Shown here piece after piece: positions 50,210 through 64,000 of a DNA stretch of 64,000 nucleotides. This stretch comes from Halostella limicola (GTDB lineage Archaea > Halobacteriota > Halobacteria > Halobacteriales > Natronoarchaeaceae), in the NCBI RefSeq assembly GCF_003675875.1, contig NZ_RCDI01000001.1:372001-436000 (forward strand), given 5' to 3'. Within the stretch, counting starts at the first letter, position 1, and the number at the start of each line of letters is the position of its first letter. The position numbers and the translations under genes are program-made. Under the pieces are notes generated by a model. It searched no databases and was not told where the DNA came from. It was given only the letters and a program-made list of their open reading frames with translations.

Positions 50210-51178
50210 GTGCAGTGGCTCGTCGACCTCCTGCTCGGCACCGTCCTCCCCCGCGTCGCCAAGATAACGCTGTTTATCGCGCTCGGTGTCGGCCTCGCGA
50301 ACCTCGCCGTCGAGTTCGGCGCGGTCCGCTACATCGCCGGCCTGGCCGCGCCGCTGACCGACCCCGCGAACCTCCCGCGGGAAGTCGGCACCGCCATCCT
50401 CACGACGACCGCCTCGACGACGGCGGGCTACGGCATGCTCGCCGAGTTCCGCGAGTCCGGCACGCTGGACGACCGCGCGACGCTCGTCGCCATCACCATC
50501 AACACGTTCTTCGGCTTCGTCCAGCACATCTTCACCTTCTACGCGCCGGTGCTGATCCCCATCCTCGGCCTCGAAGTCGGCCTGCTGTACGTGGGCACCC
50601 GCGCGGCCATCGCGCTCGCCATCACCGCCGTCGGCGTCATCGCCGGCGCGCTCTTGCTCTCCGAGGAGAACGTCGACCCGGTCGCCACGCCCGACGACGT
50701 GGAGGGGCCGGACCCCGACGAGACCACGCTCGCGGAGAAGGTCCGCGCCGCGGCGGCGAGCACGGAGTCGAAGGTGGTCGACATCCTCCCGCGGCTGCTC
50801 GTCGTGTACGCGCTGGTGAGCGTCCTCACGGCCCGCGCCGACCTGACGGAACTCACCGCCGTCGCGGAGCCGCTGACCTCGCTGCTCGGGCTGCCGGGCG
50901 CGGCCGTCCCCGTCATCGCCGTCTTCGCGTTCGACACGACGAGCGGGGCCATCGCCATCGCGCCGCTGCTCGGCGACACGTTCACGCCGCGCCAGGCCGT
51001 CGCGACGATGCTGGTCGGCGGCATCGTCTCGTTCACCGTCTCGACGTTCAAGCGATCCATCCCGTTCCAGTACGGGATCTGGGGCCCCGAGTTCGGCTCG
51101 AAGGTGATAGCGGTGAACACGGGCCTGAAGGTGGCGTTCATCGCCGTCGCCCTCGCCGTCCTGCTTTCCCCGCTGTGA
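50210..51178 (+). CDS. nucleoside-recognition (Gate) domain membrane protein
   Basis: 322 residues from GTG, with about eight hydrophobic segments in two halves. The halves share the Gate-domain motif (TTTASTTAGYGMLAEF in the first, FDTTSGAIAIAPLLGDTFT in the second), as in SpmA/SpmB and CNT-like nucleoside-recognition proteins. A polar loop (about 160-190) separates them. Transport substrate unknown. Last GC-rich gene before the island. Confidence 0.85.
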   Translation: MQWLVDLLLGTVLPRVAKITLFIALGVGLANLAVEFGAVRYIAGLAAPLTDPANLPREVGTAILTTTASTTAGYGMLAEFRESGTLDDRATLVAITINTFFGFVQHIFTFYAPVLIPILGLEVGLLYVGTRAAIALAITAVGVIAGALLLSEENVDPVATPDDVEGPDPDETTLAEKVRAAAASTESKVVDILPRLLVVYALVSVLTARADLTELTAVAEPLTSLLGLPGAAVPVIAVFAFDTTSGAIAIAPLLGDTFTPRQAVATMLVGGIVSFTVSTFKRSIPFQYGIWGPEFGSKVIAVNTGLKVAFIAVALAVLLSPL

Positions 51179-51458
51179 GCGCCTTCTCGCGGTTTCACCC
51201 TCGTTCTCTGGTCCAGACTCTCTACTGACAACTACTTAAAGCAGTCAATAGAGGGTTGTGAATCCAGCATCAGTGGTGCCACCATGCCGTACCATCATGT
51301 GGTTCACTCGGATTATCTATTTGAAGGAACCTACACTTTTCGATTTCATGTAAGGAAAAATAATTAATAAGTTAAATAACTATAGATAATAAATATAAAT
51401 AGAAATATAATACTCGACAAGGTACTAAGGATTACGGCGTACAAGAGAGCATGAAGTC
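51179..51458. other. composition boundary and AT-rich island edge
   Basis: The GC-rich chromosomal sequence ends near 51235 (CTACTTAAAG) and the next bases are much richer in A/T, extreme at about 51350-51420. No tRNA, integrase or clear direct repeat marks the edge. Small open frames of 27-31 codons here look like noise or relics. Confidence 0.5.
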
Positions 51459-52373
51459 ATGACTAATATCTCGGAGAGATCGTGGATTGAATCTATAGCT
51501 GGCTTTGTGTTAGCTGCCTTCGTTATCACTGGAGTCATATCTATAGCATTAGTTATGTATTTCAATAATAGTATACCTAATAGTTATATAAATTTGGGGC
51601 CACTTCTTCTGGTTCTTGTAACTCTCATAAACATAGGCCTGAGTGGGTTAGGCTATTTAGAAAGTAGAAAAGAAAGAAGGCTGAATAGAGAAACTCTTTC
51701 CGAATATAGGAAAGATGGAATAATCGAACTCTTAGCGAGATCTACTAAACGATATATGGAGGGCTTCTATTCGGATCGAAGGAAGATAAACGTTGAAACT
51801 TATGAATTCCCCCTTTATGGAGAGCTGGAGGGGGTACCGATCTCTCAATTTCTCTCCGAAGATATCATAAACGATATTGAAAAGCATTATCCTGATATCA
51901 GAGATGATTTTTCAGAATATATTGACGTCAGAAGGCGATACGTGAAGCAACGGAGAACTGCCAAAGAAAAAATAAAATCTTCTATCACTGACAAATTGCC
52001 TAATCACATCAGCGAAGAATTACACAATGAAGGAGCATCTGAAAGAAGCATAATACATAATTCAGAGGATCTTGCAGAAATAGTTTTAACAGGGACTCCT
52101 CCAGAAAGCTCAACAGGGTGGGTTGAATCGTCTCTTGACCAAACCCAAGAGCCATTACTTGAGTGGCGAAAATCGGAAGAATTGGTAGACTGTTTTCGAT
52201 CTCTTGATTGTGTAGCAAAAGAACTCCTAACTATAAGCGATAAGATAGAAGAAGAAATAGAAGATGTTGAAGAGGAAGTGATGAGTACCTACAATATCAC
52301 GCATGCGGAGATTAAGAGCCGTGAGGAGGAATTAGGATTAGATCAGACAGAAGTAGATGTCATAACTTTATAA
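51459..52373 (+). CDS. membrane-anchored coiled-coil protein of unknown function
   Basis: 304 residues. Two membrane helices near the N-terminus (about 12-34 and 44-64), followed by a soluble helical domain rich in Glu/Lys/Arg (for example RRYVKQRRTAKEKI, ISDKIEEEIEDVEEE). No known family. Low GC and codon use differ from the region to the left, fitting acquired DNA. First gene inside the island. Confidence 0.65.
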   Translation: MTNISERSWIESIAGFVLAAFVITGVISIALVMYFNNSIPNSYINLGPLLLVLVTLINIGLSGLGYLESRKERRLNRETLSEYRKDGIIELLARSTKRYMEGFYSDRRKINVETYEFPLYGELEGVPISQFLSEDIINDIEKHYPDIRDDFSEYIDVRRRYVKQRRTAKEKIKSSITDKLPNHISEELHNEGASERSIIHNSEDLAEIVLTGTPPESSTGWVESSLDQTQEPLLEWRKSEELVDCFRSLDCVAKELLTISDKIEEEIEDVEEEVMSTYNITHAEIKSREEELGLDQTEVDVITL

Positions 52374-52476
52374 TAAATACGAGCCCAGGCAATTTCAGCA
52401 AGAAGGCACTCTTCACCGCCGTTGCACTTACCGTCCTCTCTCTATCCGCACTCGTACAATCTCTATGATATATTCT

Positions 52477-52935
52477 CTAAATCTTATCTTCAATTTCTCC
52501 GATCGCATTTTGTCTATTCACGGCAATAGTTCTCATACTATCTATGATTTCGGAATAGGCCTCATCGCTGCTTATATTCCCTTGGCGCGTTTCTTCTAAC
52601 TGAAAATTGACTTCTTTTTGTGCCATCTTTGCACTTGAGTAGAATTGGGTGATCGCTGATGCTTCTTCTTCTGATAGGAGTCCTAATTCAACCGCATTTG
52701 CTTGATAAACAGTATCTTCTACAAAATTTATTCCTGGATAATCCAGCGGAGTAGCTTGTTCTACCCAGTTATCAATCACATCCATAGCCTCTAATTCTGA
52801 TTTCAAGGAGGCCCGAAGCTTCTGCTTCTTACGACGCGTTTTATAGAATGAGATGAACCAATTTGATCCAAGCGAGAGTATTGCCCCGAGTACTACGAGT
52901 GAAAGGTCTCGAATGAATGCCATTGGGAAATCCAT
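52477..52935 (-). CDS. small membrane-anchored protein of unknown function
   Basis: 152 residues. One N-terminal membrane helix (FIRDLSLVVLGAILSLGSNWF) followed by a basic cluster (KTRRKKQKLR) and a soluble helical domain. Domain size and layout resemble many membrane-tethered phage or island proteins, but no family can be named. A second ATG at 52923 is possible. Confidence 0.6.
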   Translation of the reverse strand: MDFPMAFIRDLSLVVLGAILSLGSNWFISFYKTRRKKQKLRASLKSELEAMDVIDNWVEQATPLDYPGINFVEDTVYQANAVELGLLSEEEASAITQFYSSAKMAQKEVNFQLEETRQGNISSDEAYSEIIDSMRTIAVNRQNAIGEIEDKI

Positions 52936-53507
52936 AACCCTACTTTTTGATTAGGTATCTTGATTGTACTGGAAGAGACGGAATGAGGCTTAGAAACACC
53001 CACAGAAAGAAAAGGAGAAGAAATATCCACCAGGTGAAATGACTTAGCAGAGACGGAAAAACACAGCTGGGAGTTCCTATGGAAAAGAAGTACGGAAGGA
53101 TAAAGGTAGGGAACGAAAGTCTGGGAAGAACCCATTTGCAGACAGGATAGATTAAAAGACACGGGAATTCATAAAGAAGAGAACTTATCCCCCGTTCTTG
53201 AGACGATTTTGTCGGTTAATATCCTCAGGGAATCCTACCTTCCACGTGAAGGTGGTTTCAGCAGGTGTCAAATTCAAGCCAATATACGCTCCATTAATGA
53301 GGATCTCTTTCTGGATGGTGAGTGAACTATTCCCACTTCTCCTAAACCGATGAGGGTGCCGCACAACGATTTTCAGAGACGATCTCTTCTCTACTGTAGC
53401 TCACACCTGGGCGTTTGTCAATAGTCTCATCGTCTCGATGAGAGTTCCTCATTTGTTATAACATACCAAACGTATTTCGTCCACACTGTAGGATTCAGAA
53501 ATGAGGC
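52936..53507. other. gene-poor spacer with purine-rich tract
   Basis: No convincing gene. 52960-53165 is strongly purine-rich on the plus strand; the minus-strand 89-codon frame within it lacks protein character. Further on, GTCTCATCGTCTCGATGAGAG (53424-53444) holds a short imperfect inverted repeat. Confidence 0.5.
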
Positions 53508-53777
53508 ATGAACTACGATTTAAACAAGGAAAGGACGGAGACGGATAGACAAGGTAACGTCATCAGAATATTCTATGAAGGAGAACAGATATACCATGAA
53601 TACTACCATTGCTTTAATTGTACCTGGACAGGGGAAATAGACCACTACAGTAGATTCTTGGAGAATTGTCCCCACTGTGCAGCTGGGAGACACCAAGGTG
53701 GGCTCCAAATAGAATATAGGTGGGATGGGATATACAAGGATGCTCGTGAGCAGGCACTAAGTAGAGATAATCCATAG
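53508..53777 (+). CDS. small zinc-ribbon protein
   Basis: 89 residues. CFNC (~35-38) and CPHC (~54-57) form a zinc ribbon within HCFNCTWTGEI and LENCPHCAAG. The rest is polar with many Tyr and Asp. No family recognised. Low GC. The conserved spacer motif A begins ~50 nt downstream. Confidence 0.55.
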   Translation: MNYDLNKERTETDRQGNVIRIFYEGEQIYHEYYHCFNCTWTGEIDHYSRFLENCPHCAAGRHQGGLQIEYRWDGIYKDAREQALSRDNP

Positions 53778-53827
53778 CAGCACTTCTATTCTTGATCCGA
53801 GGATCAATTTCACGTGACCATTGCTTG

Positions 53828-53884
53828 CCACCCCCATCAAAATTAGCCATGAATTGGGTCCCCACCTTTGCTGGGCGGGGGTGG
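53828..53884. repeat. conserved structured spacer motif, copy A
   Basis: An 8-bp stem CCACCCCC (53828-53835) / GGGGGTGG (53877-53884) encloses ATCAAAATTAG and an inner TGGGTCCCCA. It shares CCCCATCAARATTAG and GGGGTGGAT, at almost equal spacing (31 versus 32 nt), with copy B at 63741. Function unknown. Confidence 0.5.
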
Positions 53885-54034
53885 ATAAGACCGCACGTCA
53901 CTACACGAAATGACTGTAATATTTAATCTTCTAGTTATTAATCAATAGAGTATTAAATATCCCCATTACATGTCTTTGTAGTTGAGGTAATCAGGACAGT
54001 GGAGAGGTAGAACGATAAAAGGAGGATAGTTCCG

Positions 54035-54823
54035 TTATCCACTCAGTTGTCTATGGAGTTGTCTGAGCGCGCCACGGACATCGTCGCGGTCCATTCCCAG
54101 GTCTTCCGCTAATGATTGAAAATCATCACGAGTCTCTATACGGTCCTCAATGTCAGTGATTCCCTTATTACCTACATAGGCGATAGCCGCAACGATATGA
54201 GCGTCTTGGCCACCACCTTCTTGATTAGGACCGTAAGAGGTGAAGGCCCCTGAATTGATCGAGGTAACGAGATGCACCACTTGCTTCACTTCGATACCTG
54301 ACAATCCAACCGTTGTGGCACATGCCTCTGCTCGACTCTTGAGGAATCGACGTTCACGATCGAGTTTCTGCACACCATTTTCCCGTCCCCGATGGGCATC
54401 TCGTCCATCGTTGTATTGGTCGAGTGAGTAGACATTGAAGTCCAGTTTGTCCCCATTGAATGTGGTCTCAGCCGCAGAATCTTCGTTGATTGTATCATGC
54501 TCGTTTTGGAGGGTTCCATTTCCACTCACGCTATTGTGGTCAAACTGCCGTCGCTCCGCCTCGATTTCAAATGACGTGTGCCAGAAGTTTCGCTGTTCGT
54601 GAATCAGACCACAGTCACTACAAAACAATTCCAAATCATTGCTCACAAGGGGACCGCCACACTCCTCACATTCCTTTCTCTGGTTGGTGGATTTCCTTTT
54701 ATCGACATGGACCACTGCATCGAGTTCATAGGGAATCCATCGGTACGGGGTACTGCCGCTGATCGTCGGAGTCGGTACATCGGCTGTTGTCTCTTCGAAG
54801 TTGCTGGAATTGCTGACGGACAT
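54035..54823 (-). CDS. truncated TFB-like transcription factor
   Basis: 262 residues. An N-terminal zinc ribbon (C52-x2-C55, C68-x2-C71; CEECGGPL...FCSDCG) as in archaeal TFB. After a linker there is one cyclin-like region (about 155-260: KLDRERRFLKSRAEACATTVGL...). Normal TFB has ~300 residues and two cyclin repeats, so this form could bind TBP or polymerase in an altered way or act as a repressor. A perfect inverted repeat lies about 60 nt upstream. Start ATG 54823; longer in-frame starts exist. Confidence 0.65.
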   Translation of the reverse strand: MSVSNSSNFEETTADVPTPTISGSTPYRWIPYELDAVVHVDKRKSTNQRKECEECGGPLVSNDLELFCSDCGLIHEQRNFWHTSFEIEAERRQFDHNSVSGNGTLQNEHDTINEDSAAETTFNGDKLDFNVYSLDQYNDGRDAHRGRENGVQKLDRERRFLKSRAEACATTVGLSGIEVKQVVHLVTSINSGAFTSYGPNQEGGGQDAHIVAAIAYVGNKGITDIEDRIETRDDFQSLAEDLGMDRDDVRGALRQLHRQLSG

Positions 54824-54882
54824 GTATTGGCGCTCGTTCCATCGAACAGCCCGTTCAGCCCATCCGTCCGCCTTCAGAATGA

Positions 54883-54906
54883 GACGCAAAGTAGTGTATT
54901 TGCGTC
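54883..54906. promoter_or_regulatory. 8-bp inverted repeat upstream of the TFB-like gene
   Basis: GACGCAAA (54883-54890), 8-nt spacer GTAGTGTA, TTTGCGTC (54899-54906). The perfect symmetry and position ~60 nt before the TFB-like ATG suggest an operator. A protein binding it cannot be named. Confidence 0.45.
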
Positions 54907-55205
54907 CCGATCCGTCGCAGGGGCAAAAAGGCCATTCAGAGCGACGGGGCGTGTGGGGCAGGGATGTTCGCACTAATAACTACGTTCTGAGAAATAATAA
55001 AATCACCGATAATAAAGGACTCTGTCATTCAAACTGTCAGCCTGTGCTCACCCATTTAGGCCTTCAGAGGTGTACAAAAGGGAGATTCCATTGAAGTATA
55101 CTCCTAACACAGCGTAATATCTGCAGAACAATAAGAGGAGTCAGGGATTGAAATGGTAGGCAGAAACACTGTATCTTGAAGATGTAACCAGTCAAATACC
55201 TGTGC

Positions 55206-55224
55206 AGAGGAAATTTTTTCCTCT
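55206..55224 (-). terminator. hairpin after the defence operon
   Basis: AGAGGAAA (55206-55213) pairs with TTTCCTCT (55217-55224) around a 3-nt loop, about 50 nt beyond the stop of the last operon gene on the minus strand. A candidate transcription end; archaea mainly use T-runs, so this is tentative. Confidence 0.35.
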
Positions 55225-55275
55225 ATAGCCTGGCCTATCTCCTGATACGGCCATGCCTTGCGCGCGTGCGACCTT

Positions 55276-55671
55276 TTACGATTGCACGTTAATATTGCTG
55301 TAGTACCACCCTGAACCTTCCTGCCCAATCCCGTGGAAAATCCTTCTGAGAGGAATTTCGGCATCACCATTTCGGAGAATAGGGTCGTCCCAATATTCGA
55401 GACCATTGACCACAAACTGAACACGAGGATTTTCGGTTAAGAGAAAGTTGACATGGTCGCGGAGAATTTCATGAATGTAATCGCACGCAGTAAGTGAGTC
55501 GTCTACACCTCGTAGGAAGTCATCGAAACCATAGACGGTGACATCATAGGGGAGACTCTCCATCCGCTCAACGTGACGGAGGAACTCCACAATGCTCATC
55601 TCGTCGTCAAATGTCCCGTGCCGCTCAATGGCATCCTCCGAATGTACATGAAAGCCGATGTCCAAACTCAT
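55276..55671 (-). CDS. unknown small protein, last gene of defence operon
   Basis: 131 residues, acidic, soluble. Features: an N-terminal MSLDIGFHVHSED, a middle SLPYDVTVYGFDDFLRGV, and a C-terminal part with GIGQEGSGWYYSN. No cysteines that pair, no membrane segment; no family recognised. Begins ~70 nt after the methyltransferase stop, on the same strand, so likely in the same transcript. It occupies the place of accessory proteins seen in related DUF499/DUF1156 clusters. Confidence 0.6.
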   Translation of the reverse strand: MSLDIGFHVHSEDAIERHGTFDDEMSIVEFLRHVERMESLPYDVTVYGFDDFLRGVDDSLTACDYIHEILRDHVNFLLTENPRVQFVVNGLEYWDDPILRNGDAEIPLRRIFHGIGQEGSGWYYSNINVQS

Positions 55672-55740
55672 TTACTCACCTCCAACTGGTGTCGCTTACA
55701 ATATAAACGTCAGTATAGCTGGAGGTTCTATGTCCCATCG

Positions 55741-58539
55741 CTATGAGAAGTCATCCAGATCAAGTTGAGTGTCCGTTCGCTTCTCAACATACTCCGCGAT
55801 ATCTGTGTACTCATCGTCATTCTCAATTTCAGCCAAGCGTCGAAGTGCAGCAATTGAACCCTCGTCGACCCACTTTCCGAACTTCTGTGATAACTGGTCA
55901 GTCTCGTAGAGATAGCGCATGTAATGTGCCTTGTCTACCGCCAGAGCGTCCCGTTTCGATTCGACATCGTCGGCACGGTCCAACGGCCCACATACGTTCA
56001 GCTGGTCTCCCTCCTGCTCCAGTAGACCCTCGTGGACGAGTTCGGAGACGTCAACCCCTCGCTGGCGGAGATCCTTGTTGAGTGCGTTGTAGGATATGGA
56101 ACTGCCACGCCCGAGCACGTAGGTGAGATAGACGGCACTGAGGGTGTCCATCTCGTCGCTCATTGTCTGGACCCGCTCTTCCATCAACTGCTCGTCGACG
56201 ATATCGCGGATCGTCTCGACGGCGTCATTGACGGACATCTGCTCGCCTTCGTGGGTGACGTTCGGGAAGTGGCGCGAGTACACTTCAAGGCACTTGCCCA
56301 TCGTCACCGCGAAGACATCTCCCTGCGTGAGCCGCGATCCGCTCTCTTCGAGACGGTTGATTTCCTCCTCAGCGCGGAAGTAAATCTCATCCTCCAGTGA
56401 GCGCCAGCTCACCTCTTCAGGTTCCTCTTCTCGTTTCCGACAGACAACAATCATGTCGTACTCGATGTTTGCCTTCTCGTGGATATGCGTGGAGCCGCGC
56501 ATCTCCCCACGGATGGGATACAGGGACGTGACGTAGAACCCTGCATCAAGTACGGAACGGAGAACAGAACTCCACCCTTCCGTCTCCTTATGGTGGAAGG
56601 TGAAGGCCATGATACCGTCGTCGCGGAGCTTGTCGTGGGACTCCGCAAAGACGTTCGTCAGCACGTCGATGAAGTGATTTTCGTCGCGGAAGGTCTCAAC
56701 GTTGTCCTCACTCTTCCGATCCACTACTGCTTCGCTGGCCTTCGGAGTGAGTTCGGCGTTGAAGTGCTCATACTCGTCTCCGAGTACCTGCTTGAGCCAG
56801 ACGTAGTAGAAGTCCGCCACCTCGGCATACATCACGTTGTCGAAATATGGGGGGTCGGTGACGACCGCGTCCACACTATTCTCTTCGAGAGGTAGGTATT
56901 CCGATGTCCCACATCGGAGATGAACGTTGTAGGAGGCGTCGTCGATTCCTTCGACTGGCTCACCAATCTTTTCAGGGTCGTCTGTAACAAAGCCTTCCAC
57001 CTTTCCAATACCGTCTCGCTGCTTCGTTTCGCCGTCTTCAACGTACTTCTCATATGGATTCAGGCAGAACTCTTTGCCTGCTCGCATTTTGTCAAACTCA
57101 CCAGAGAAGGTCCCTCGTCCATATTCTGTACCCCAGATGTTGTTTTCGATAGGCGCGTGACGGGCCGTAATCGTATGGCGTTTGTAGATACCCTCCAGCT
57201 TGTTTGCAGAACGATTATACTCGCAAAGCATGTTGTTGAACTCTGTTGCGCTTGAGAAAGCCAGCAGCAGAAACTCCTTCACATTCTGATTCTCGATATC
57301 GTCAATCTCGTTTAGGAGCTTAGAGAGGCAGAGTAGTTGCCGTGAGTTGAACATCTGGTCATACCGCTCATATCCGTGGTTGCGGACGAAGTCAGAAGTA
57401 CCGATGTACCGCTCAGTAGTCGGAATGGGAAGCTCGTCGCGTTTTTCTTCAAGTTCTGCTTCTGCTTCCTCGAACAGTTGGCGATCGAAATCCTTAGCAG
57501 ATTTGTAACCTTTCTCGTCGGTCTCAGGACAGTAGTATTCGATAGCGTGGAGGGATTCGTCTGGTTTCCCAAACCGCTCTACACTCTCGATAATCGACAT
57601 CTCAGGGTGCTCATCGCAGTGGGGACAGGTATAGTTCTTTCGTGAGACGTGTCCCGCGTCCTTAGGAACAAACGTATGGTCACATTCCGTATCCTCGCTA
57701 TCTTCTCCATTGCACTCAGAGCACTCGGACGAACAGCGTGGACATTCTGTTTTTGTTCGATAATCGTCAGTCTGAAAAACGTGCCAACAGTCGGGACAAA
57801 CGACGTTATAGTGGTCGTCTTTCGATGAACGCGCATTCGCAAGTCGGTAGTCTTTGAACAGAGGGACTTTCTCACCACAGTTCCGACAGGGAAGTTCCTT
57901 CACCCAGAAAGAGTACATTACGTCAGCGAGTGGCTTTCCTTCTTCCTGTGCCGCACTGCCTGTGTGTTCATTGCAGTGCGGGCACTCTGTCTTGTAGTAA
58001 TCAAGAATCCCTTTCTCCTCATCTTCATGTTCCCTACCGACACTCTCGTAGATAGACTTGTAAGCAGCATCCAGTTTGTCGAGATCGACAGGTTCGACTT
58101 CTTTCTTGACAATAAACCACGCCACAGGGCTTAGCTCGCTTCCGATAGCGTTACACCCCATGCGGAGCGCCTCGACGATACTGGTCCCGCCACCCATGAA
58201 CGGATCGAGGACCGTCTTCCCATCGAAGTCCACGTCTTCGAGGTAGTATTCCCAAAGTGCGTCGGGATTCTCCCAGTCTACCTCGGGAAGTCCGCTTTCG
58301 TCTTCGAGTGTGGACTGGCGGTCACTGTCGACGGACATCTCCTCGTCCGCGAGGGCGTAGAGGAGCATCGTGCGGAAGACTGATCCCAATCGCCGCGCCC
58401 ACCACTTGTGCATGGTGTAGACGGGACGATAGTAGCGTTTGGCGTGAGCTTCCTTCTCCGCGATCTCATTCACCTGGTCGATGGGAAACGAAATCTCGAT
58501 AGGTCGACGGCGGGGTTTCTGATCTTGTTCCTGACTCAT
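55741..58539 (-). CDS. DUF1156-type DNA methyltransferase with zinc ribbons
   Basis: 932 residues. DUF1156 region at ~10-60 (RPIEISFPIDQVNEIAEKEA, HKWWARRLGSVFR). AdoMet motif I LDPFMGGGTS (111-120), catalytic DPPY at 562-565 (TDPPYFDNV), suggesting an adenine or cytosine amino-methylase. Between them are several CxxC pairs (186-189, 218-221, 248-251, 266-269, 273-276, 305-308). The C-terminal ~200 residues are helical. Role: marks host DNA as self in defence, as PglX does in BREX. Starts 2 nt after the PglZ-like stop. Confidence 0.88.
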   Translation of the reverse strand: MSQEQDQKPRRRPIEISFPIDQVNEIAEKEAHAKRYYRPVYTMHKWWARRLGSVFRTMLLYALADEEMSVDSDRQSTLEDESGLPEVDWENPDALWEYYLEDVDFDGKTVLDPFMGGGTSIVEALRMGCNAIGSELSPVAWFIVKKEVEPVDLDKLDAAYKSIYESVGREHEDEEKGILDYYKTECPHCNEHTGSAAQEEGKPLADVMYSFWVKELPCRNCGEKVPLFKDYRLANARSSKDDHYNVVCPDCWHVFQTDDYRTKTECPRCSSECSECNGEDSEDTECDHTFVPKDAGHVSRKNYTCPHCDEHPEMSIIESVERFGKPDESLHAIEYYCPETDEKGYKSAKDFDRQLFEEAEAELEEKRDELPIPTTERYIGTSDFVRNHGYERYDQMFNSRQLLCLSKLLNEIDDIENQNVKEFLLLAFSSATEFNNMLCEYNRSANKLEGIYKRHTITARHAPIENNIWGTEYGRGTFSGEFDKMRAGKEFCLNPYEKYVEDGETKQRDGIGKVEGFVTDDPEKIGEPVEGIDDASYNVHLRCGTSEYLPLEENSVDAVVTDPPYFDNVMYAEVADFYYVWLKQVLGDEYEHFNAELTPKASEAVVDRKSEDNVETFRDENHFIDVLTNVFAESHDKLRDDGIMAFTFHHKETEGWSSVLRSVLDAGFYVTSLYPIRGEMRGSTHIHEKANIEYDMIVVCRKREEEPEEVSWRSLEDEIYFRAEEEINRLEESGSRLTQGDVFAVTMGKCLEVYSRHFPNVTHEGEQMSVNDAVETIRDIVDEQLMEERVQTMSDEMDTLSAVYLTYVLGRGSSISYNALNKDLRQRGVDVSELVHEGLLEQEGDQLNVCGPLDRADDVESKRDALAVDKAHYMRYLYETDQLSQKFGKWVDEGSIAALRRLAEIENDDEYTDIAEYVEKRTDTQLDLDDFS

Positions 58540-58541
58540 GT

Positions 58542-59432
58542 CTACAACCTCACCTCGATACGCGGCGTGATGCACTCCAGCAGACTGAGACCACCGTGCT
58601 GGAAGGTACTATACTTGCCTCGTGCGGGCCACGTGTATTTACCGATAGGCATGTAGTAGCCGTCCGCCTCAACGACGAGACCCTCATCGACAAGATGACT
58701 CGCGTTGACGTCACCGACGCTCTCGAAGCGCCCGCTGAAAGTCTCCTGTAGGGCCGACTTCTGTCTGTCGCTGATCTGGAAGGTGTGACCAGCGTCGAGT
58801 CGCGCATACCCATGGTCCGACCCGATCACTACACGGTCGGTATCGAGTTGATCGAGAACTGCCCGTAGTGCCGTCTCGGTCTTCTCGTACATCTCCTTGA
58901 TGGAGGAGAGCTTCGTCTTCCCCTCCTGAATATTTTCGAGCAGGGCATCGGGATAGCGACACCAGATGATTTCCTCGTCACCGTCGAGTGATGGCTCCTG
59001 GCTCTTGACGCTCGCCGTCTTGTGCTCTTTCTTGAGGTCGGAGTAGCCGACGCGGTCACGGTAGAACTTCGTCTCTGACGGTACCGAGGAGAACGAGTAT
59101 CCTGTCTCAGGTTCGTGCCCTCGCTCTTCGAGCATGTCGACAAACATTGCTGCCTCGCGGACACTCATGGCGTCCATCACCACGAACGTGCCACCGTCAG
59201 GGACGTCAAGAGACGCTTCGTTGACGCACTTGTCGGGAAGCACGTCGTCGAAGAACTCCCGATAGACATCCAGCAGCAACCGCTCATAGCTCACTGCGTC
59301 GGTCTCTTTGTCGTAGTGGTCGCTGACGTCATCACCAGCGGGATACCAGATCTCCCAAAGGGCGTTCCAGACTGGCGAGACGGGATCGTCGTTCTCGATC
59401 AACTGAGCGAGATCCTCAGTTTTCAGTCTCAC
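58542..59432 (-). CDS. compact PglZ-like phosphatase-fold protein
   Basis: 296 residues from GTG 59432. Alkaline-phosphatase-superfamily core: metal/nucleophile site VVMDAMS (Asp87, Ser90), second metal site SDHG (Asp206, His207) and a C-terminal HGGLSLLE histidine. This fits the PglZ domain of BREX, but here without the large N-terminal part (PglZ is usually 700 residues or more). GTG overlaps the end of the DUF499 gene by 17 nt, so the proteins are made together. Substrate unknown. Confidence 0.75.
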   Translation of the reverse strand: MRLKTEDLAQLIENDDPVSPVWNALWEIWYPAGDDVSDHYDKETDAVSYERLLLDVYREFFDDVLPDKCVNEASLDVPDGGTFVVMDAMSVREAAMFVDMLEERGHEPETGYSFSSVPSETKFYRDRVGYSDLKKEHKTASVKSQEPSLDGDEEIIWCRYPDALLENIQEGKTKLSSIKEMYEKTETALRAVLDQLDTDRVVIGSDHGYARLDAGHTFQISDRQKSALQETFSGRFESVGDVNASHLVDEGLVVEADGYYMPIGKYTWPARGKYSTFQHGGLSLLECITPRIEVRL

Positions 59433-61926
59433 GCTCGACCACCACCGTTGCGTCAATGTGATTGCCGCTTGGGAGCTGTTCAAGGAACTCGATCAGTTCG
59501 TCTTTCGAAAGTTCGTCAACATCGTAATTCAGGTCGACACTGAGCGTCGTGTCACTATCGCTGTTTATCCGTGCTTCGGCTTGGCTCCTGAGTACGCGGG
59601 CACTGTTGCCTTCCAACTCAATGGCTTCCTTCGTCGTAGAGACGGGCGAGGAACCGCCTCCCCCGCTGCTGCCGACATCGCTACCACCTCCTGTCGTGAT
59701 TGGTTTGTTAGGACCATCGCCGCCGTCTCCGCCGCTATCACCGACGTCGTCGCCACCATCACTGCCACCTGTCGGTTCTGGTGGTTCCTCTTCCTCGAAA
59801 ATCGAGTCGTCGAGATTGTCGGGGTGATGAATTGTCAGATCGTCGTCGAGATTGGGGCGACGGTCGTCTTTATGCGGGACGTAGAAGTTCGCTCGGTCGC
59901 CTTCGAGTACGATATTCTCGTCGCGGTACAACTGGCTGACCGCAGAGTAGAACACCTCGTCGGAGAGGAGTACGGGCATTCGACGGAACTGCCTGAAGTC
60001 ATTGAGCATCGACGCGATAGCGATACCGTTCTCGGCGTCCGCAACCTCCTCTCGGATCTTCTCACTGACGTAGGTCTTGTCCCGACCGACTTTGTCCTTC
60101 ACGTCGTCGACGTCCGCCGCCACGTCGATTCGCCGCATCCGCACGCCGTCGCCGTTCGGGTCTTCACTCCACTTGACCCACTTCCCGAAGCGGTCTTCGA
60201 GTTCATTCCGCAATTCCCGACGTTCGTCGCGGATGATCGATGCGAGTTCCCCACCGTCATCGACGTTCCCACGGAGGTTTTCAGCCCCGAGTACGCGGGC
60301 GGCCTTGCTGATGATCTCCTCGTCGTCGCGGATCTCCTTCTTTGGCGTGACGAACAGTACCGTGTTCTGGTAAGTGCGTCCCTCGAAGAAGTCGTTAAGC
60401 TTCGTTCGGAGTGTCCCGTTCGAGAGATAGTCGAGTATTACGACCGTGGTCAGTTCCTTGGTGTCGGGGACATCTTCGTCGGGATACACGTAGACGTTGT
60501 CTCCCCATACCTCGTTTCGAACAACGTCGACGAGCGTATCCTCAATGCTATCACGATCGTCTTTGAGTGCACGCTCCTGTTCCCGAGTAACGAGTGCGGT
60601 GAGCTTCGGATCTTCCGTCAGGTAATAGTTCTCTTTCTGTGAGTCGCGGTCGAGATAGTGAGCAACCCCGTAGAGACTCTCAAGCGACATGTGGAGTTTG
60701 TCGATGGTCGCCTTATTGGGCTTGAACGTCCCGAGTAAGCACTCGGTCACAGACGCCCGCTGTTCCCGTTCCTCGATGGTGTAGAGGAAAATTGTCCGTA
60801 GAAGGTCGTCCCCGAAGTCAATGTCCTCGACGGCGTCCTTGTCGGAGACATAGCGGTTGAATAATGTTTGGTTGATGCCACGGAAGGCACTCGGTTCAAT
60901 GTCGCACGTGACGATGAGATCGGTCTCTTCGTACTTACGGCGGACTGTGTCAGCAAGAACGTTCATCGCACCACGAACGCTCTGGCGCTCTCGTCCAGCT
61001 TCATAGATATCGTCAAGAAGATCGAGAAGTTCTGGATGGAAGGGATATGTCTCGACCATCCGATTCTCGTATCGCTTTGGTTCGTCGATATTGACAGGGT
61101 AACTATAGTGGTCAATGTACTTGCTGACAACATTTCGCACTTCTCGCTTATCGACATTATCCTGCCGAGTCTCGAATAGCCGATGGAGGATGATTTTCTC
61201 ACGGTCCCCCGTATCGTTCATATCCACTGAATATGGGTTGGTTCGATCGAGAATGCGCTTGATGTCTTGGCTCTTGTCTAATAGCGTGACGAAAGCGAAG
61301 AGATCCTCTTGAGGATCATTAGCCACTTCGAAGAGGTTCTGGAGGAAGAACTCGTTACGTTCGAGTAGATCTTCGTTCTCATTCTCGTCGAAAGACTCCC
61401 ACCACGTTTCTATCTCGTCAAAAAAGATAGCGATGGGATCTTCAGCAGTAAGTTTTTCAATATGCTCTGTTGTGGGATACCGCTTGATATCGTTGAGTAA
61501 GTCTTCCCGACCCAGGTTCCTGAATATCGGCTCCCAGATAAGATCGGCGTCAGTTTCGCTGGTGGAAAGAATAGATGCCTTCGCACGATCAGGTAGGTTG
61601 AGAGAGATATCCCACTCGTCTATCCACTCCTGTGCAGCTGTGGGATTGTTGAACATATGATACAAAACGAGCAACCCGTGGGACTTCCCAGCGCCGTAGG
61701 GGCCAGATAGGGTGATACCCCCTTGACTATCCCGTCCACACAATTTGTTATCAACGTGATCAAAGGCCGTCTGGAGGGCATTCGAAGGATAGGTCATAGA
61801 GAGAAGTCGGTCAACATCATTCTCCAGGCGATCCTCCGCCTCACCGACTTTGTGTGCCTGTAAGACGCCTTGGAACTGCCCCTCCACCACCTCATCACGA
61901 GGGGCAAGGAAATCAGCGATACTCAT
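59416..61926 (-). CDS. DUF499-type P-loop ATPase of the defence operon
   Basis: 836 residues. Walker A GPYGAGKS (75-82), Walker B IFFDE (167-171), followed by a large AAA-like helical region and a C-terminal Gly/Ser-rich linker (~705-760) leading to a small alpha/beta end. The pattern fits DUF499, a BrxC/PglY-like ATPase class found beside DUF1156 methyltransferases. It may couple ATP use to recognition or blocking of phage DNA. First gene of the operon; upstream is a 250-nt purine-rich leader. Confidence 0.85.
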   Translation of the reverse strand: MSIADFLAPRDEVVEGQFQGVLQAHKVGEAEDRLENDVDRLLSMTYPSNALQTAFDHVDNKLCGRDSQGGITLSGPYGAGKSHGLLVLYHMFNNPTAAQEWIDEWDISLNLPDRAKASILSTSETDADLIWEPIFRNLGREDLLNDIKRYPTTEHIEKLTAEDPIAIFFDEIETWWESFDENENEDLLERNEFFLQNLFEVANDPQEDLFAFVTLLDKSQDIKRILDRTNPYSVDMNDTGDREKIILHRLFETRQDNVDKREVRNVVSKYIDHYSYPVNIDEPKRYENRMVETYPFHPELLDLLDDIYEAGRERQSVRGAMNVLADTVRRKYEETDLIVTCDIEPSAFRGINQTLFNRYVSDKDAVEDIDFGDDLLRTIFLYTIEEREQRASVTECLLGTFKPNKATIDKLHMSLESLYGVAHYLDRDSQKENYYLTEDPKLTALVTREQERALKDDRDSIEDTLVDVVRNEVWGDNVYVYPDEDVPDTKELTTVVILDYLSNGTLRTKLNDFFEGRTYQNTVLFVTPKKEIRDDEEIISKAARVLGAENLRGNVDDGGELASIIRDERRELRNELEDRFGKWVKWSEDPNGDGVRMRRIDVAADVDDVKDKVGRDKTYVSEKIREEVADAENGIAIASMLNDFRQFRRMPVLLSDEVFYSAVSQLYRDENIVLEGDRANFYVPHKDDRRPNLDDDLTIHHPDNLDDSIFEEEEPPEPTGGSDGGDDVGDSGGDGGDGPNKPITTGGGSDVGSSGGGGSSPVSTTKEAIELEGNSARVLRSQAEARINSDSDTTLSVDLNYDVDELSKDELIEFLEQLPSGNHIDATVVVERETEN

Positions 61927-62205
61927 TATCGCCTTCTACTGTATGGTACTCCCTCTTTGATGTTTCCCATCAAGGAAGTATCAGGCACCTATCTATCTCA
62001 CTATCTCTGTACCACCTGTATCAGATTCATCCTACCCCCTCTTTCTCTATTCTTCAGTTCCGTTATTCCTTTCTACCTATATTCCCCATCTCACTATTTC
62101 CTCCATCTATCTTCTAAGTTCTATGTTCATTCTGTGTTGCTTCCCCCCTGCCTCCCTTCTCACTTTGAAAGACACATAATGGGGGCTTATAAAAGGAGTT
62201 CTAAC
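61927..62205. other. long purine/pyrimidine-skewed leader region
   Basis: No gene. The plus strand from about 61940 to 62160 is almost all C and T, so a transcript of the DUF499 gene would have a purine-rich leader of up to ~250 nt. A TTATAAAAG box at 62188-62196 could be the promoter. Confidence 0.45.
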
Positions 62206-62349
62206 TTAGCAATCAGGACAGTACGTCTCAAAATCATCCTTGGTAAGTGGATTACCACATTCCTCACACAAACCAGACCGCTTCGGGGGGATTGATGTTT
62301 CCGTTACTCGGGTTTTCACTTTCACTCTGGATTGGTGACATTTATACAT
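62206..62349 (-). CDS. mini zinc ribbon resembling TFB N-terminus
   Basis: 47 residues. C28-x2-C31 and C44-x2-C47 in CEECGNPL...YCPDC, followed directly by the stop codon. The ribbon is close to that of the TFB-like gene at 54.0-54.8 kb (CEECGGPL...FCSDC). Could be a functional mini-protein or the relic of a TFB-like gene. Its start overlaps the upstream region of the divergent gene. Confidence 0.35.
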   Translation of the reverse strand: MYKCHQSRVKVKTRVTETSIPPKRSGLCEECGNPLTKDDFETYCPDC

Positions 62350-62370
62350 CTGTCTGCTTTCTTTAGAAAC

Positions 62371-62718
62371 ATGTCCGTGAAAAATCTCATACAAGAGTTC
62401 ATGGAACTACCAGTCTCACTTCAGTTGACAATTGGTGCCCTCGGCCTAGCCGCAGTCCAGCAATCCAGACAGGGACATATTGGACGAGTAGGGATTGCTA
62501 GTGCTGGAGCAATAGTTATTGGAGCTGCGTATCCAATTTGGGGACAGCTCCCTGAGATGTGGAGAATGTATTCAATTGTTGCTGTTCCATTTACAGCCAT
62601 CGCAGCCCTATCGTATCTTAGCAGAACTTCTCTACCTACTGAATTCTACAAGCTCGCTCTACTGCTATACGGTGCAATTCCTGTAATATTGGCGCTTGTG
62701 TACGGTTTCCCCCTGTAA
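62371..62718 (+). CDS. small membrane protein
   Basis: 115 residues with about three hydrophobic segments (~15-30, 37-56, 66-83, end 95-113). ATG at 62371 has a TTTATAC box ~23 nt upstream. No family recognised. Low-GC island gene. Confidence 0.6.
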   Translation: MSVKNLIQEFMELPVSLQLTIGALGLAAVQQSRQGHIGRVGIASAGAIVIGAAYPIWGQLPEMWRMYSIVAVPFTAIAALSYLSRTSLPTEFYKLALLLYGAIPVILALVYGFPL

Positions 62719-63025
62719 TATAGAGAGTTTGTAAGCCGCTGAGCACTGTTCTGAGGTGAATTTATCATAGAGGATTATAACTACTTGGTCATCTCTCAAA
62801 CCGACTGTGAGTAATATTAGATGGGATAGAGATACGTGTGGGTTATCCACTGCGTTGTTCTACTCTCCACGCTCCTGACGCATCTGTTGCACAGGTTACT
62901 TGCGGCGATATTCTCCGCTTGAGCGAACGAGTCTGCACGGAAACCCGTTCGGTCAGTAATTACTTGTACTGTGTTCAGTATAATGGGATAATAATTAACA
63001 CGGTTTGGGTTGTTCATGGTGAGAT
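62719..63025. other. spacer with GC-richer relic
   Basis: No convincing complete gene. The part 62850-62965 is GC-richer than its surroundings and reads as protein-like on the minus strand (VITDRTGFRADSFAQAENIA), perhaps the end of a lost gene or insertion element. Confidence 0.4.
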
Positions 63026-63706
63026 ATGAGTACAAATCCCGTACATGATCCAGATACTGGAGAGATTAATTATCTTACCGATGTGTGGGATGAAATGCAG
63101 GATATTCCTCCTGAATATACTCTAATCCCAGTGCCGAAAAAGTCGAATGTAGATCCAGGAGACCCATACGAAATTGACATCTATATCGTTGGACATGGTC
63201 ACTTTTCTAACTCAAAACTCCAAGTTCATTATCCATTTCCAGACTTGATTACAGAAAATGAGGAAAAAGGAGAATTGGGCCACAGTATACAAACGATCGA
63301 GGCTTCTGCATATCACACGCTACAAAGTAGAAATACTCCCCCCGAGAATCATGATATAGGAGCCTGGGGAGCAACGGCTATCTTTGAACCCGAGATGATT
63401 TCACCATTACGAACTACGGATTATTCATACCCTCAACTTTCAAGTGAGGTCACCTTTGCTGGATGCCCGTTTCTTCAACTTAAATTATATACTTCAGAAG
63501 ACGCGGATGCAGGAGACTATCCAATTCACTATACGTTCACGTATGGTGATAATGAAAACGTTTTACAGGATCACAAGAAAACTATGCTTCACATTAATAA
63601 TGCCCGTGAACGTCGGGAGCCTTGGGTAAGCAGAGCAGGAATAATTATTGTACTAGTTGCCACTCTCAGTCTCCTTATTCAGGCATGGAATACAATTGGT
63701 TTTTAA
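63026..63706 (+). CDS. C-terminally anchored protein of unknown function
   Basis: 226 residues. A long soluble, beta-rich part (for example YEIDIYIVGHGHFSNSKLQVHY) and a single membrane helix at the C-terminus (~203-221; IIIVLVATLSLLIQAW), so tail-anchored. No family recognised. Low GC. Copy B of the spacer motif follows 35 nt after the stop. Confidence 0.6.
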   Translation: MSTNPVHDPDTGEINYLTDVWDEMQDIPPEYTLIPVPKKSNVDPGDPYEIDIYIVGHGHFSNSKLQVHYPFPDLITENEEKGELGHSIQTIEASAYHTLQSRNTPPENHDIGAWGATAIFEPEMISPLRTTDYSYPQLSSEVTFAGCPFLQLKLYTSEDADAGDYPIHYTFTYGDNENVLQDHKKTMLHINNARERREPWVSRAGIIIVLVATLSLLIQAWNTIGF

Positions 63707-63740
63707 GTGTATCTATACTGATTCTGATCCTCATTCCCCG

Positions 63741-63797
63741 ACCCCATCAAGATTAGAAAGTGGGCGAGCCCCATACGTAGGCAGGCCAGGGGTGGAT
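63741..63797. repeat. conserved structured spacer motif, copy B
   Basis: Shares CCCCATCAARATTAG and GGGGTGGAT with copy A at 53828. Pairing of ACCCC (63741-63745) with GGGGT (63789-63793) and an inner TGGGC/GCCCA hairpin are kept though intervening bases differ. Confidence 0.5.
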
Positions 63798-63853
63798 TTG
63801 CCCCCACGACGTGAATGGAACATATCGAAGGGTAATCTAGTAGTATATGGATA

Positions 63854-64000
63854 ATGAACATTCTCTCTATGCTGATTGACCTACTCCCGATGTCAATAGC
63901 GATCCTCCTCCCCGAACTATCCCTACTCCTTATCGGGTATGTGGTCGAGAAACACTACGTGAGTCGAGTAACGTGTTTTACGAACGTGCTGGCTCTCAAC
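63854..64000 (+). CDS. partial membrane protein at window edge
   Basis: An open frame from ATG 63854 runs off the right edge (49 codons). It begins with a hydrophobic stretch (MLIDLLPMSIAILLPELSLLL) consistent with a membrane segment. Nothing more can be said. Confidence 0.35.
   Translation, partial: MNILSMLIDLLPMSIAILLPELSLLLIGYVVEKHYVSRVTCFTNVLALN

What the first reader, a model, noticed from the sequence alone, without database searches (positions are those of the whole stretch)
55276..61926. Reduced BREX-like operon: DUF499 ATPase, mini-PglZ, DUF1156 methylase, small unknown
Four same-strand genes, the first three overlapping or nearly so, form one unit in a low-GC island. The sequence shows Walker A/B (GPYGAGKS, IFFDE), a phosphatase-fold core (VVMDAMS, SDHG) and methylase motifs (LDPFMGGGTS, DPPY). 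Known BREX systems combine a BrxC/PglY ATPase, PglX and PglZ, and DUF499/DUF1156 gene pairs are known near defence genes. The set seen here has no BrxA, BrxB or helicase in the window and has a very small PglZ. It may be an undescribed minimal variant.
Basis: partly seen in the sequence, partly recalled or inferred. Interest (0 to 1): 0.8.

Follow-up and report, generated by a model that had tools for sequence, protein, structure and literature searches.

The report
Helicase-free four-gene BREX-related defence operon
A salt-loving archaeon carries, on a mobile DNA island, a four-gene set (ATPase, small PglZ nuclease-like enzyme, DNA methylase, small adaptor) that very probably blocks viruses; it is a stripped-down relative of a recently described defence family, kept together from archaea to bacteria but without the helicase that family normally has.

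Summary
Four minus-strand genes at 55276-61926 encode a DUF499 AAA+ ATPase, a ~296-aa PglZ, a DUF1156 N6-methylase and a 131-aa protein with no library match. The same four genes, in the same order and on one strand, occur in all 37 loci examined: haloarchaea (two PglZ clades), one Bacillota genome and three Chloroflexota genomes. PglZ active-site residues are intact and all four genes are under purifying selection. The closest described system is Type-3 BREX-related (BR; Rakesh & Krishnan 2026): DUF499 ATPase, standalone PglZ, DUF1156 methylase, iSTAND, BrxHII-like helicase. Plasmid examples of it show the same gene order plus a terminal SNF2 helicase. Here that helicase is absent from every four-gene core, and the window's genome has no match to it. 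The operon sits on a 14.6-kb integrase-bearing island with 91-nt direct repeats; the site is empty in four congeners. Best reading: a conserved helicase-free variant of Type-3 BR, with methylation marking self and PglZ as effector. Function is untested. New variant of a known kind.

The parts
59416..61926 (-). DUF499-family AAA+ ATPase (BrxC-like scaffold), 836 aa, Walker A GPYGAGKS, Walker B IFFDE
   Evidence: Pfam DUF499 31.4 bits (cut-off 23), PADLOC HmaC 64 bits, NCBIfam DUF499_antiphage 45 bits, below its cut-off
58542..59432 (-). minimal PglZ (296 aa, GTG start): helical linker plus alkaline-phosphatase-superfamily core; D87, T121, D162, E166, D206, H207, H279
   Evidence: Foldseek PorX 5e-8; VIA Z 17.4 to PorX 141-517 and Z 14.2 to BREX PglZ 379-749; six of these residues invariant and the seventh E or H in 42 of 42 PglZ sequences
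55741..58539 (-). DUF1156 N6-adenine DNA methylase (932 aa, ATG start), motifs LDPFMGGGTS and DPPY, six CxxC pairs in the insert
   Evidence: Pfam N6_N4_Mtase 63 bits and DUF1156 28.6 bits; PADLOC HmaB 160 bits, PglX|PglXI 72 bits
55276..55671 (-). 131-aa fourth core component, probable BrxB/iSTAND-type adaptor (eroded P-loop-like fold)
   Evidence: conserved in 37 of 37 four-gene loci; related to the protein in the iSTAND position of Type-3 BR, hhalign E 6e-4 over 58 columns; AF2 pLDDT 87, weak VIA matches nearly all to P-loop/AAA+/RecA folds, best Z 5.2
51091..51181 (.). left copy of a 91-nt direct repeat (island end), covering the 3' end of the host gene at 50210-51178; right copy (98% identical) at 65667-65757, outside the window
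   Evidence: contiguous empty site in four congeneric genomes
51091..64000 (.). window part of a 14.6-kb low-GC integrative island; a tyrosine-type (phage-family) integrase lies at ~64559-65638, just beyond the window
   Evidence: Phage_integrase 38.4 bits, cut-off 27.1

Best explanation
The operon is a helicase-free, four-gene variant of the Type-3 BREX-related (BR) antiviral system, carried as main cargo of an integrative island. Proposed working: the DUF1156 enzyme methylates adenine at a specific site and so marks self DNA (inferred). The DUF499 AAA+ ATPase, with the small adaptor in the role BrxB has in BREX, holds the enzymes together and samples DNA (inferred from the BrxB:BrxC:PglZ core complex of Type-I BREX). 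When unmarked or viral DNA is sensed, the assembly releases the metal-dependent phosphodiesterase activity of PglZ, which nicks or cleaves that DNA and stops its replication (inferred from Type-I PglZ). No helicase or other nuclease is encoded in the operon; PglZ is its only effector candidate. Shown here: composition, order, conservation, intact catalytic residues, purifying selection, mobility of the island. Not shown: defence, methylation, complex formation, nuclease activity.
For: Same order and strand in 37 of 37 loci in haloarchaea, Bacillota and Chloroflexota. Type-3 BR plasmids (Klebsiella, Tenderia, Aminobacter, Ensifer) have the same order, DUF499-PglZ-DUF1156-small, followed by SNF2. 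Small protein related to the one in their iSTAND position (E 6e-4). PglZ fold and catalytic residues intact. Helicase profile finds BR helicases in L011, L012, L024, L025 but none at four-gene loci except one generic SNF2 hit 3.9 kb from L061; none in the window's genome. Defence context: other defence genes inserted between PglZ and methylase in several loci (Hachiman HamAB, SIR2-HerA). Mobile island. Type-I BREX: PglZ is a metal-dependent nuclease (PMC12205998) and BrxB:BrxC:PglZ is a core complex (PMC13326643).
Against: No functional data on this lineage. PglZ scores under the Pfam cut-off by sequence. This PglZ lacks the N-terminal ~98 residues with which BREX PglZ binds BrxB, so the adaptor contact must differ or be absent. 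The ATPases of helicase-plus Type-3 BR form a distant clade, so closeness to that subtype rests on gene order and content. Most host genomes, though not this one, contain other SNF2 helicases that could act in trans.
Confidence: 0.7

Rival explanations
1. It is an ordinary Type-3 BR system that lost its helicase and either works with a helicase supplied in trans or is decaying.
For: Helicase is a core part of Type-3 BR as published; 25 of 34 host genomes have some SNF2-family match.
Against: Helicase absent at 37 of 37 cores across phyla; dN/dS about 0.05-0.1; the window's genome and eight other hosts have no SNF2 match at all at E 1e-5.
Confidence: 0.12
2. PglZ does not cut DNA but hydrolyses nucleotides or cyclic oligonucleotides, so the system acts by depleting or signalling rather than by cutting the invader.
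For: Nearest solved relative is PorX, a phosphodiesterase on oligonucleotides (citing the literature); Type-I PglZ is inhibited by ATP.
Against: Type-I BREX PglZ nicks and linearises DNA; in a sampled haloarchaeal set the PglZ-less relatives carry an McrBC-type restriction pair next to ATPase-methylase-small, which suggests PglZ stands in for a DNA-cutting effector.
Confidence: 0.2
3. A selfish modification or addiction module that keeps the island in the host, or an epigenetic regulator, with defence only as a by-product.
For: Sits on a mobile island with integrase and direct repeats; relatives lie on plasmids.
Against: The composition matches a described restriction-like family, and other defence genes gather between PglZ and methylase in relatives.
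Confidence: 0.08
4. A reduced canonical BREX system (type 1, 3 or 5).
For: PglZ plus ATPase plus methylase; PADLOC PglX|PglXI 72 bits, BrxC 13 bits.
Against: ATPase matches DUF499 only in Pfam, not the BrxC family DUF6079; methylase is closer to HmaB (160 bits); PglZ lacks the BREX N- and C-terminal domains.
Confidence: 0.04

Closest known systems
Type-3 BREX-related (BR) system, Rakesh & Krishnan 2026 (PMC12839542)
   Same: DUF499 ATPase, DUF1156 N6-methylase and a standalone PglZ; a small protein after the methylase in the position of iSTAND; same gene order as plasmid examples L103, L104, L107, L108.
   Different: No BrxHII-like SNF2 helicase in any of 37 loci; small protein 129-134 aa in most loci instead of ~166-173; ATPases form a separate, distant clade.
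Hma / Type-1 BR system
   Same: HmaB-like methylase (160 bits) and HmaC-like ATPase (64 bits).
   Different: No HmaA helicase-nuclease; PglZ and the small protein instead.
Type-I BREX core BrxB:BrxC:PglZ:PglX (PMC13326643, PMC12205998)
   Same: Analogous four parts: AAA+ ATPase, PglZ, methylase, probable eroded P-loop adaptor.
   Different: Different ATPase family; PglZ lacks the N-terminal BrxB-binding domain and the C-terminal Ig-like domain; no BrxL found near the operon, BrxA test inconclusive.
Haloarchaeal DUF499-DUF1156-small loci beside McrBC (seen here)
   Same: ATPase, methylase and small protein of the same families.
   Different: No PglZ; McrB/McrC-like pair next to the small gene.

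Membership tests
Type-3 BREX-related (BR) system | DUF499 AAA+ ATPase | tested here: met
   Pfam DUF499 31.4 bits over cut-off 23
Type-3 BREX-related (BR) system | N6-methylase with N-terminal DUF1156 | tested here: met
   DUF1156 28.6 bits (cut-off 24), N6_N4_Mtase 63.3
Type-3 BREX-related (BR) system | standalone, catalytically intact PglZ | tested here: met
   VIA Z 17.4 to PorX, Z 14.2 to BREX PglZ; metal and nucleophile residues conserved in 42 of 42 sequences
Type-3 BREX-related (BR) system | iSTAND component (in 82% of published taxa) | tested here: inconclusive
   131-aa protein related to the one in the iSTAND position of plasmid examples (E 6e-4); weak P-loop/AAA+ fold matches, best Z 5.2
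Type-3 BREX-related (BR) system | BrxHII-like SNF2 helicase in the core locus | tested here: not met
   No match in any core locus; one generic SNF2 hit 3.9 kb from L061; none in the window's genome; positive controls L011, L012, L024, L025 and L103/L104/L107/L108 match
Hma / Type-1 BR | HmaA helicase (usually with fused nuclease) | tested here: not met
BREX types 1/5/6 | BrxC (DUF6079) ATPase | tested here: not met
   Only DUF499 matched in Pfam at E 0.1; PADLOC BrxC only 13 bits
BREX types 1/5/6 | BrxA | tested here: inconclusive
   PF08849 found nothing in the own genome, but the controls did not ring either
Antiviral defence system | protects against virus infection | not testable with these tools
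   needs plaque assays
Integrative element | integrase, flanking repeats, empty site in relatives | tested here: met

The most novel reading that the evidence does not exclude
The four-gene set is a separate, fourth BR subtype in which exclusion works without any helicase or translocase: an ATPase-methylase-adaptor module shared by haloarchaeal loci, onto which different effectors are plugged (PglZ here, an McrBC-type pair in others).
Probability: 0.4. Interest if true: 0.72.

Novelty: new variant of a known kind. Interest (0 to 1): 0.58.

Why it matters
How BREX-type systems stop viruses, and which parts are essential, is still open. A natural four-gene version, stable from haloarchaea to Chloroflexota and without BrxL or a helicase, would be the smallest PglZ-based set met in this work and would let one ask directly whether ATPase, adaptor, methylase and PglZ are enough. 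A test bed may exist: Halorubrum lacusprofundi carries a homologous operon on pHLAC01, and a laboratory derivative that lost that plasmid is sensitive to virus HRTV-DL1 (confounded by the loss of CRISPR and other systems; PMC10544981).

Tried and rejected
Canonical BREX: rejected on the ATPase family and the PglZ architecture. Helicase just outside the window or elsewhere in the genome: none. Small protein as a chance ORF: rejected, conserved in 37 of 37 with few amino-acid changes against many or saturated synonymous changes. Sequence search of the small protein and of the Type-3 BR iSTAND-position protein against solved structures: nothing; Foldseek gave no match under E 0.001. BrxA in the own genome: uninformative, the controls did not ring. 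PglZ in phage records: no match. tRNA at the island end: none found in 45-64 kb; the island uses a protein gene's 3' end instead. ATPase and methylase trees: quick trees with long branches; they separate the helicase-plus ATPases but do not settle whether the helicase was lost or never present. The paper's supplementary tables could not be read, so whether its authors counted these haloarchaeal loci as Type-3 BR is unknown.
Full report
Observation. Homologue starts refine PglZ to 58542-59432 (GTG, overlapping the ATPase end) and the methylase to 55741-58539 (ATG, 2 nt after PglZ); the small ORF starts 69 nt after the methylase stop with a GGAGGTG ahead of its ATG. The region lies in a 41-57% GC stretch between ~70% GC flanks.

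Families. ATPase: DUF499 (31.4 bits, cut-off 23), HmaC 64 bits. Methylase: N6_N4_Mtase and DUF1156, HmaB 160 bits, six CxxC pairs. PglZ: weak by sequence (Pfam 18.9 of 25), clear by structure. Small protein: nothing in Pfam, NCBIfam or PADLOC.

Conservation. A scan of the 84,980-species collection with the methylase and profile searches of 391 Halobacteria, 400 genomes of the Chloroflexota phylum and 199 of the Bacillota genome's phylum, with a plasmid search, gave 37 distinct four-gene loci: 30 haloarchaeal genomes in two PglZ clades, two further haloarchaeal plasmids (L106, L109), Fuchsiella (L007), and Chloroflexota (L015 and L019 from one MAG, L099, L100). In all 37 the order is ATPase-PglZ-methylase-small on one strand. 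Between close relatives dN/dS is about 0.05-0.10, with synonymous sites saturated in some pairs. One locus (L083) has its ATPase in two frames.

PglZ. The AlphaFold model (pLDDT 85) matches PorX residues 141-517 (VIA Z 17.4, rmsd 3.6, 265 residues) and BREX PglZ residues 379-749 (Z 14.2). It is thus the helical linker plus catalytic core. D87, T121, D162, D206, H207 and H279 are invariant and position 166 is E or H in 42 of 42 sequences; T121 lies in the PSxT motif that aligns with the PorX LPTAT segment holding the nucleophile (residue-level match inferred).

The fourth protein. AlphaFold gives a confident alpha/beta fold (pLDDT 87). Foldseek has no significant match; VIA's rows are nearly all P-loop, AAA+ or RecA-like, best Z 5.2, which is weak. 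Against the 166-173-aa protein that follows the methylase in helicase-plus plasmid loci it aligns at hhalign E 6e-4 over 58 columns with a shared (S)xxEFLR...LP...VTVxGLD stretch (first attempt E 0.003). Its place in the operon is the same. I read it as the BrxB/iSTAND counterpart; that is inference.

Known relatives. PMC12839542 defines Type-3 BR as DUF499 ATPase, DUF1156 methylase, BrxHII-like helicase, standalone PglZ and, in 82%, an iSTAND. Klebsiella pKP0155-2 (L103), Tenderia (L104), Aminobacter pSR6 (L107) and Ensifer pT173c (L108) fit that definition with the order DUF499-PglZ-DUF1156-small-SNF2. The window's operon is that order without the last gene. A profile of those helicases recovers BR helicases in L011, L012, L024 and L025 but nothing at the four-gene cores except one weak SNF2 hit 3.9 kb from L061. 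The window's genome has no match at all; 25 of 34 host genomes have generic SNF2 matches elsewhere, none above 212 bits. The defining helicase is therefore tested and not met, so I do not file the operon as a Type-3 BR member but as a helicase-free variant related to it. In quick trees the ATPases of helicase-plus loci are a distant clade; long branches prevent a firm statement on loss versus ancestral absence.

Effector logic. Between PglZ and the methylase other genes are inserted in several loci: HamA, HamB and an AlbA-type protein in L015, DUF3800 in L019, a RelBE-like pair in L100, SIR2 and HerA in L103. The small-protein family occurs in 80 of 391 Halobacteria genomes, 30 of them also with PglZ. 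Of 20 sampled loci outside the PglZ group, 17 carry the small gene with an McrB/McrC-like pair close by, mostly convergent to it, in loci with DUF499 and DUF1156 genes, and several have a helicase near. This suggests that ATPase, methylase and small form a shared module with exchangeable effectors, and supports PglZ as the effector here (inference).

Mechanism. Type-I PglZ is a metal-dependent nuclease that binds BrxB (PMC12205998) and BrxB:BrxC:PglZ form a core complex that, with PglX, is needed for methylation and restriction (PMC13326643). The four genes here correspond part by part to that core. The present PglZ lacks the N-terminal ~98 residues used for BrxB binding in Type-I BREX, so the contact must be different. 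Methylation, complex formation, nicking and defence are not shown for this lineage.

Setting. A tyrosine-type (phage-family) integrase gene lies at ~64559-65638. A 91-nt direct repeat, 98% identical, stands at 51091-51181 and 65667-65757; the left copy is the 3' end of the host gene 50210-51178. The joined flanks align without interruption in four congeneric genomes (in one of them, G327, as two adjoining pieces on one contig). The operon is thus the main cargo of a 14.6-kb integrative island.

Literature link. pHLAC01 of Halorubrum lacusprofundi carries a close homologue of the operon (PglZ 71% identical). A laboratory strain without pHLAC01 and part of a second replicon is sensitive to HRTV-DL1 while the type strain is not; the authors favour CRISPR but list other lost systems. 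This is suggestive only.

Verdict. Real, conserved, very probably an antiviral system; a helicase-free variant of a family described in 2026. Interest lies in the minimal composition and the available test strain.

Noticed in passing
L014:14560-17994, L011:14953-18391, L013:20060-22327, L023:14995-18421, L120-L133, L135, L136, L138: Haloarchaeal loci with DUF499 ATPase (~1080 aa), DUF1156 methylase and the small protein but no PglZ, with an McrB/McrC-like pair close by, mostly convergent to the small gene; often several DUF1156 methylases and a SNF2 helicase near. McrB/McrC are not mentioned in the main text of PMC12839542.
   Followed up: partly
L015:4040-9955, L019:9109-9891, L100:3763-4258, L103:6110-8987, L004:9476-9922: The gap between PglZ and methylase is a recurrent insertion site for other genes, several of them defence genes (HamA/HamB, AlbA, DUF3800, RelBE-like, SIR2+HerA).
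   Followed up: partly
L079-L082, L105:19133-19987: A Dam-like DNA adenine methylase gene follows the small gene on the same strand in four related loci (L105 is the annotated record of one of them).
   Followed up: no
window 62186-62194 (minus): A TATA-like TTTTATAAG lies ~260 nt upstream of the ATPase start, followed by a long purine-rich stretch; possible long leader.
   Followed up: no
window 54035-54973: 312-aa island protein with a weak TFIIB-type zinc ribbon (below cut-offs); perhaps a transcription-factor-B-like protein.
   Followed up: no
L103 and more than 30 enterobacterial plasmids: A helicase-plus PglZ locus, in L103 with SIR2 and HerA inserted and IS26 on both sides, is spread over many Klebsiella and other enterobacterial plasmids (same PglZ identity in all listed rows).
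   Followed up: no
L083:9943-12512: ATPase split over two frames, and larger gaps in the operon: a possibly inactivated copy.
   Followed up: no
L008, L009, L010, L021: Thorarchaeota contigs encode a shorter relative of the methylase (686-732 aa, 39% identical); no ATPase or PglZ match was found beside it in L008.
   Followed up: no
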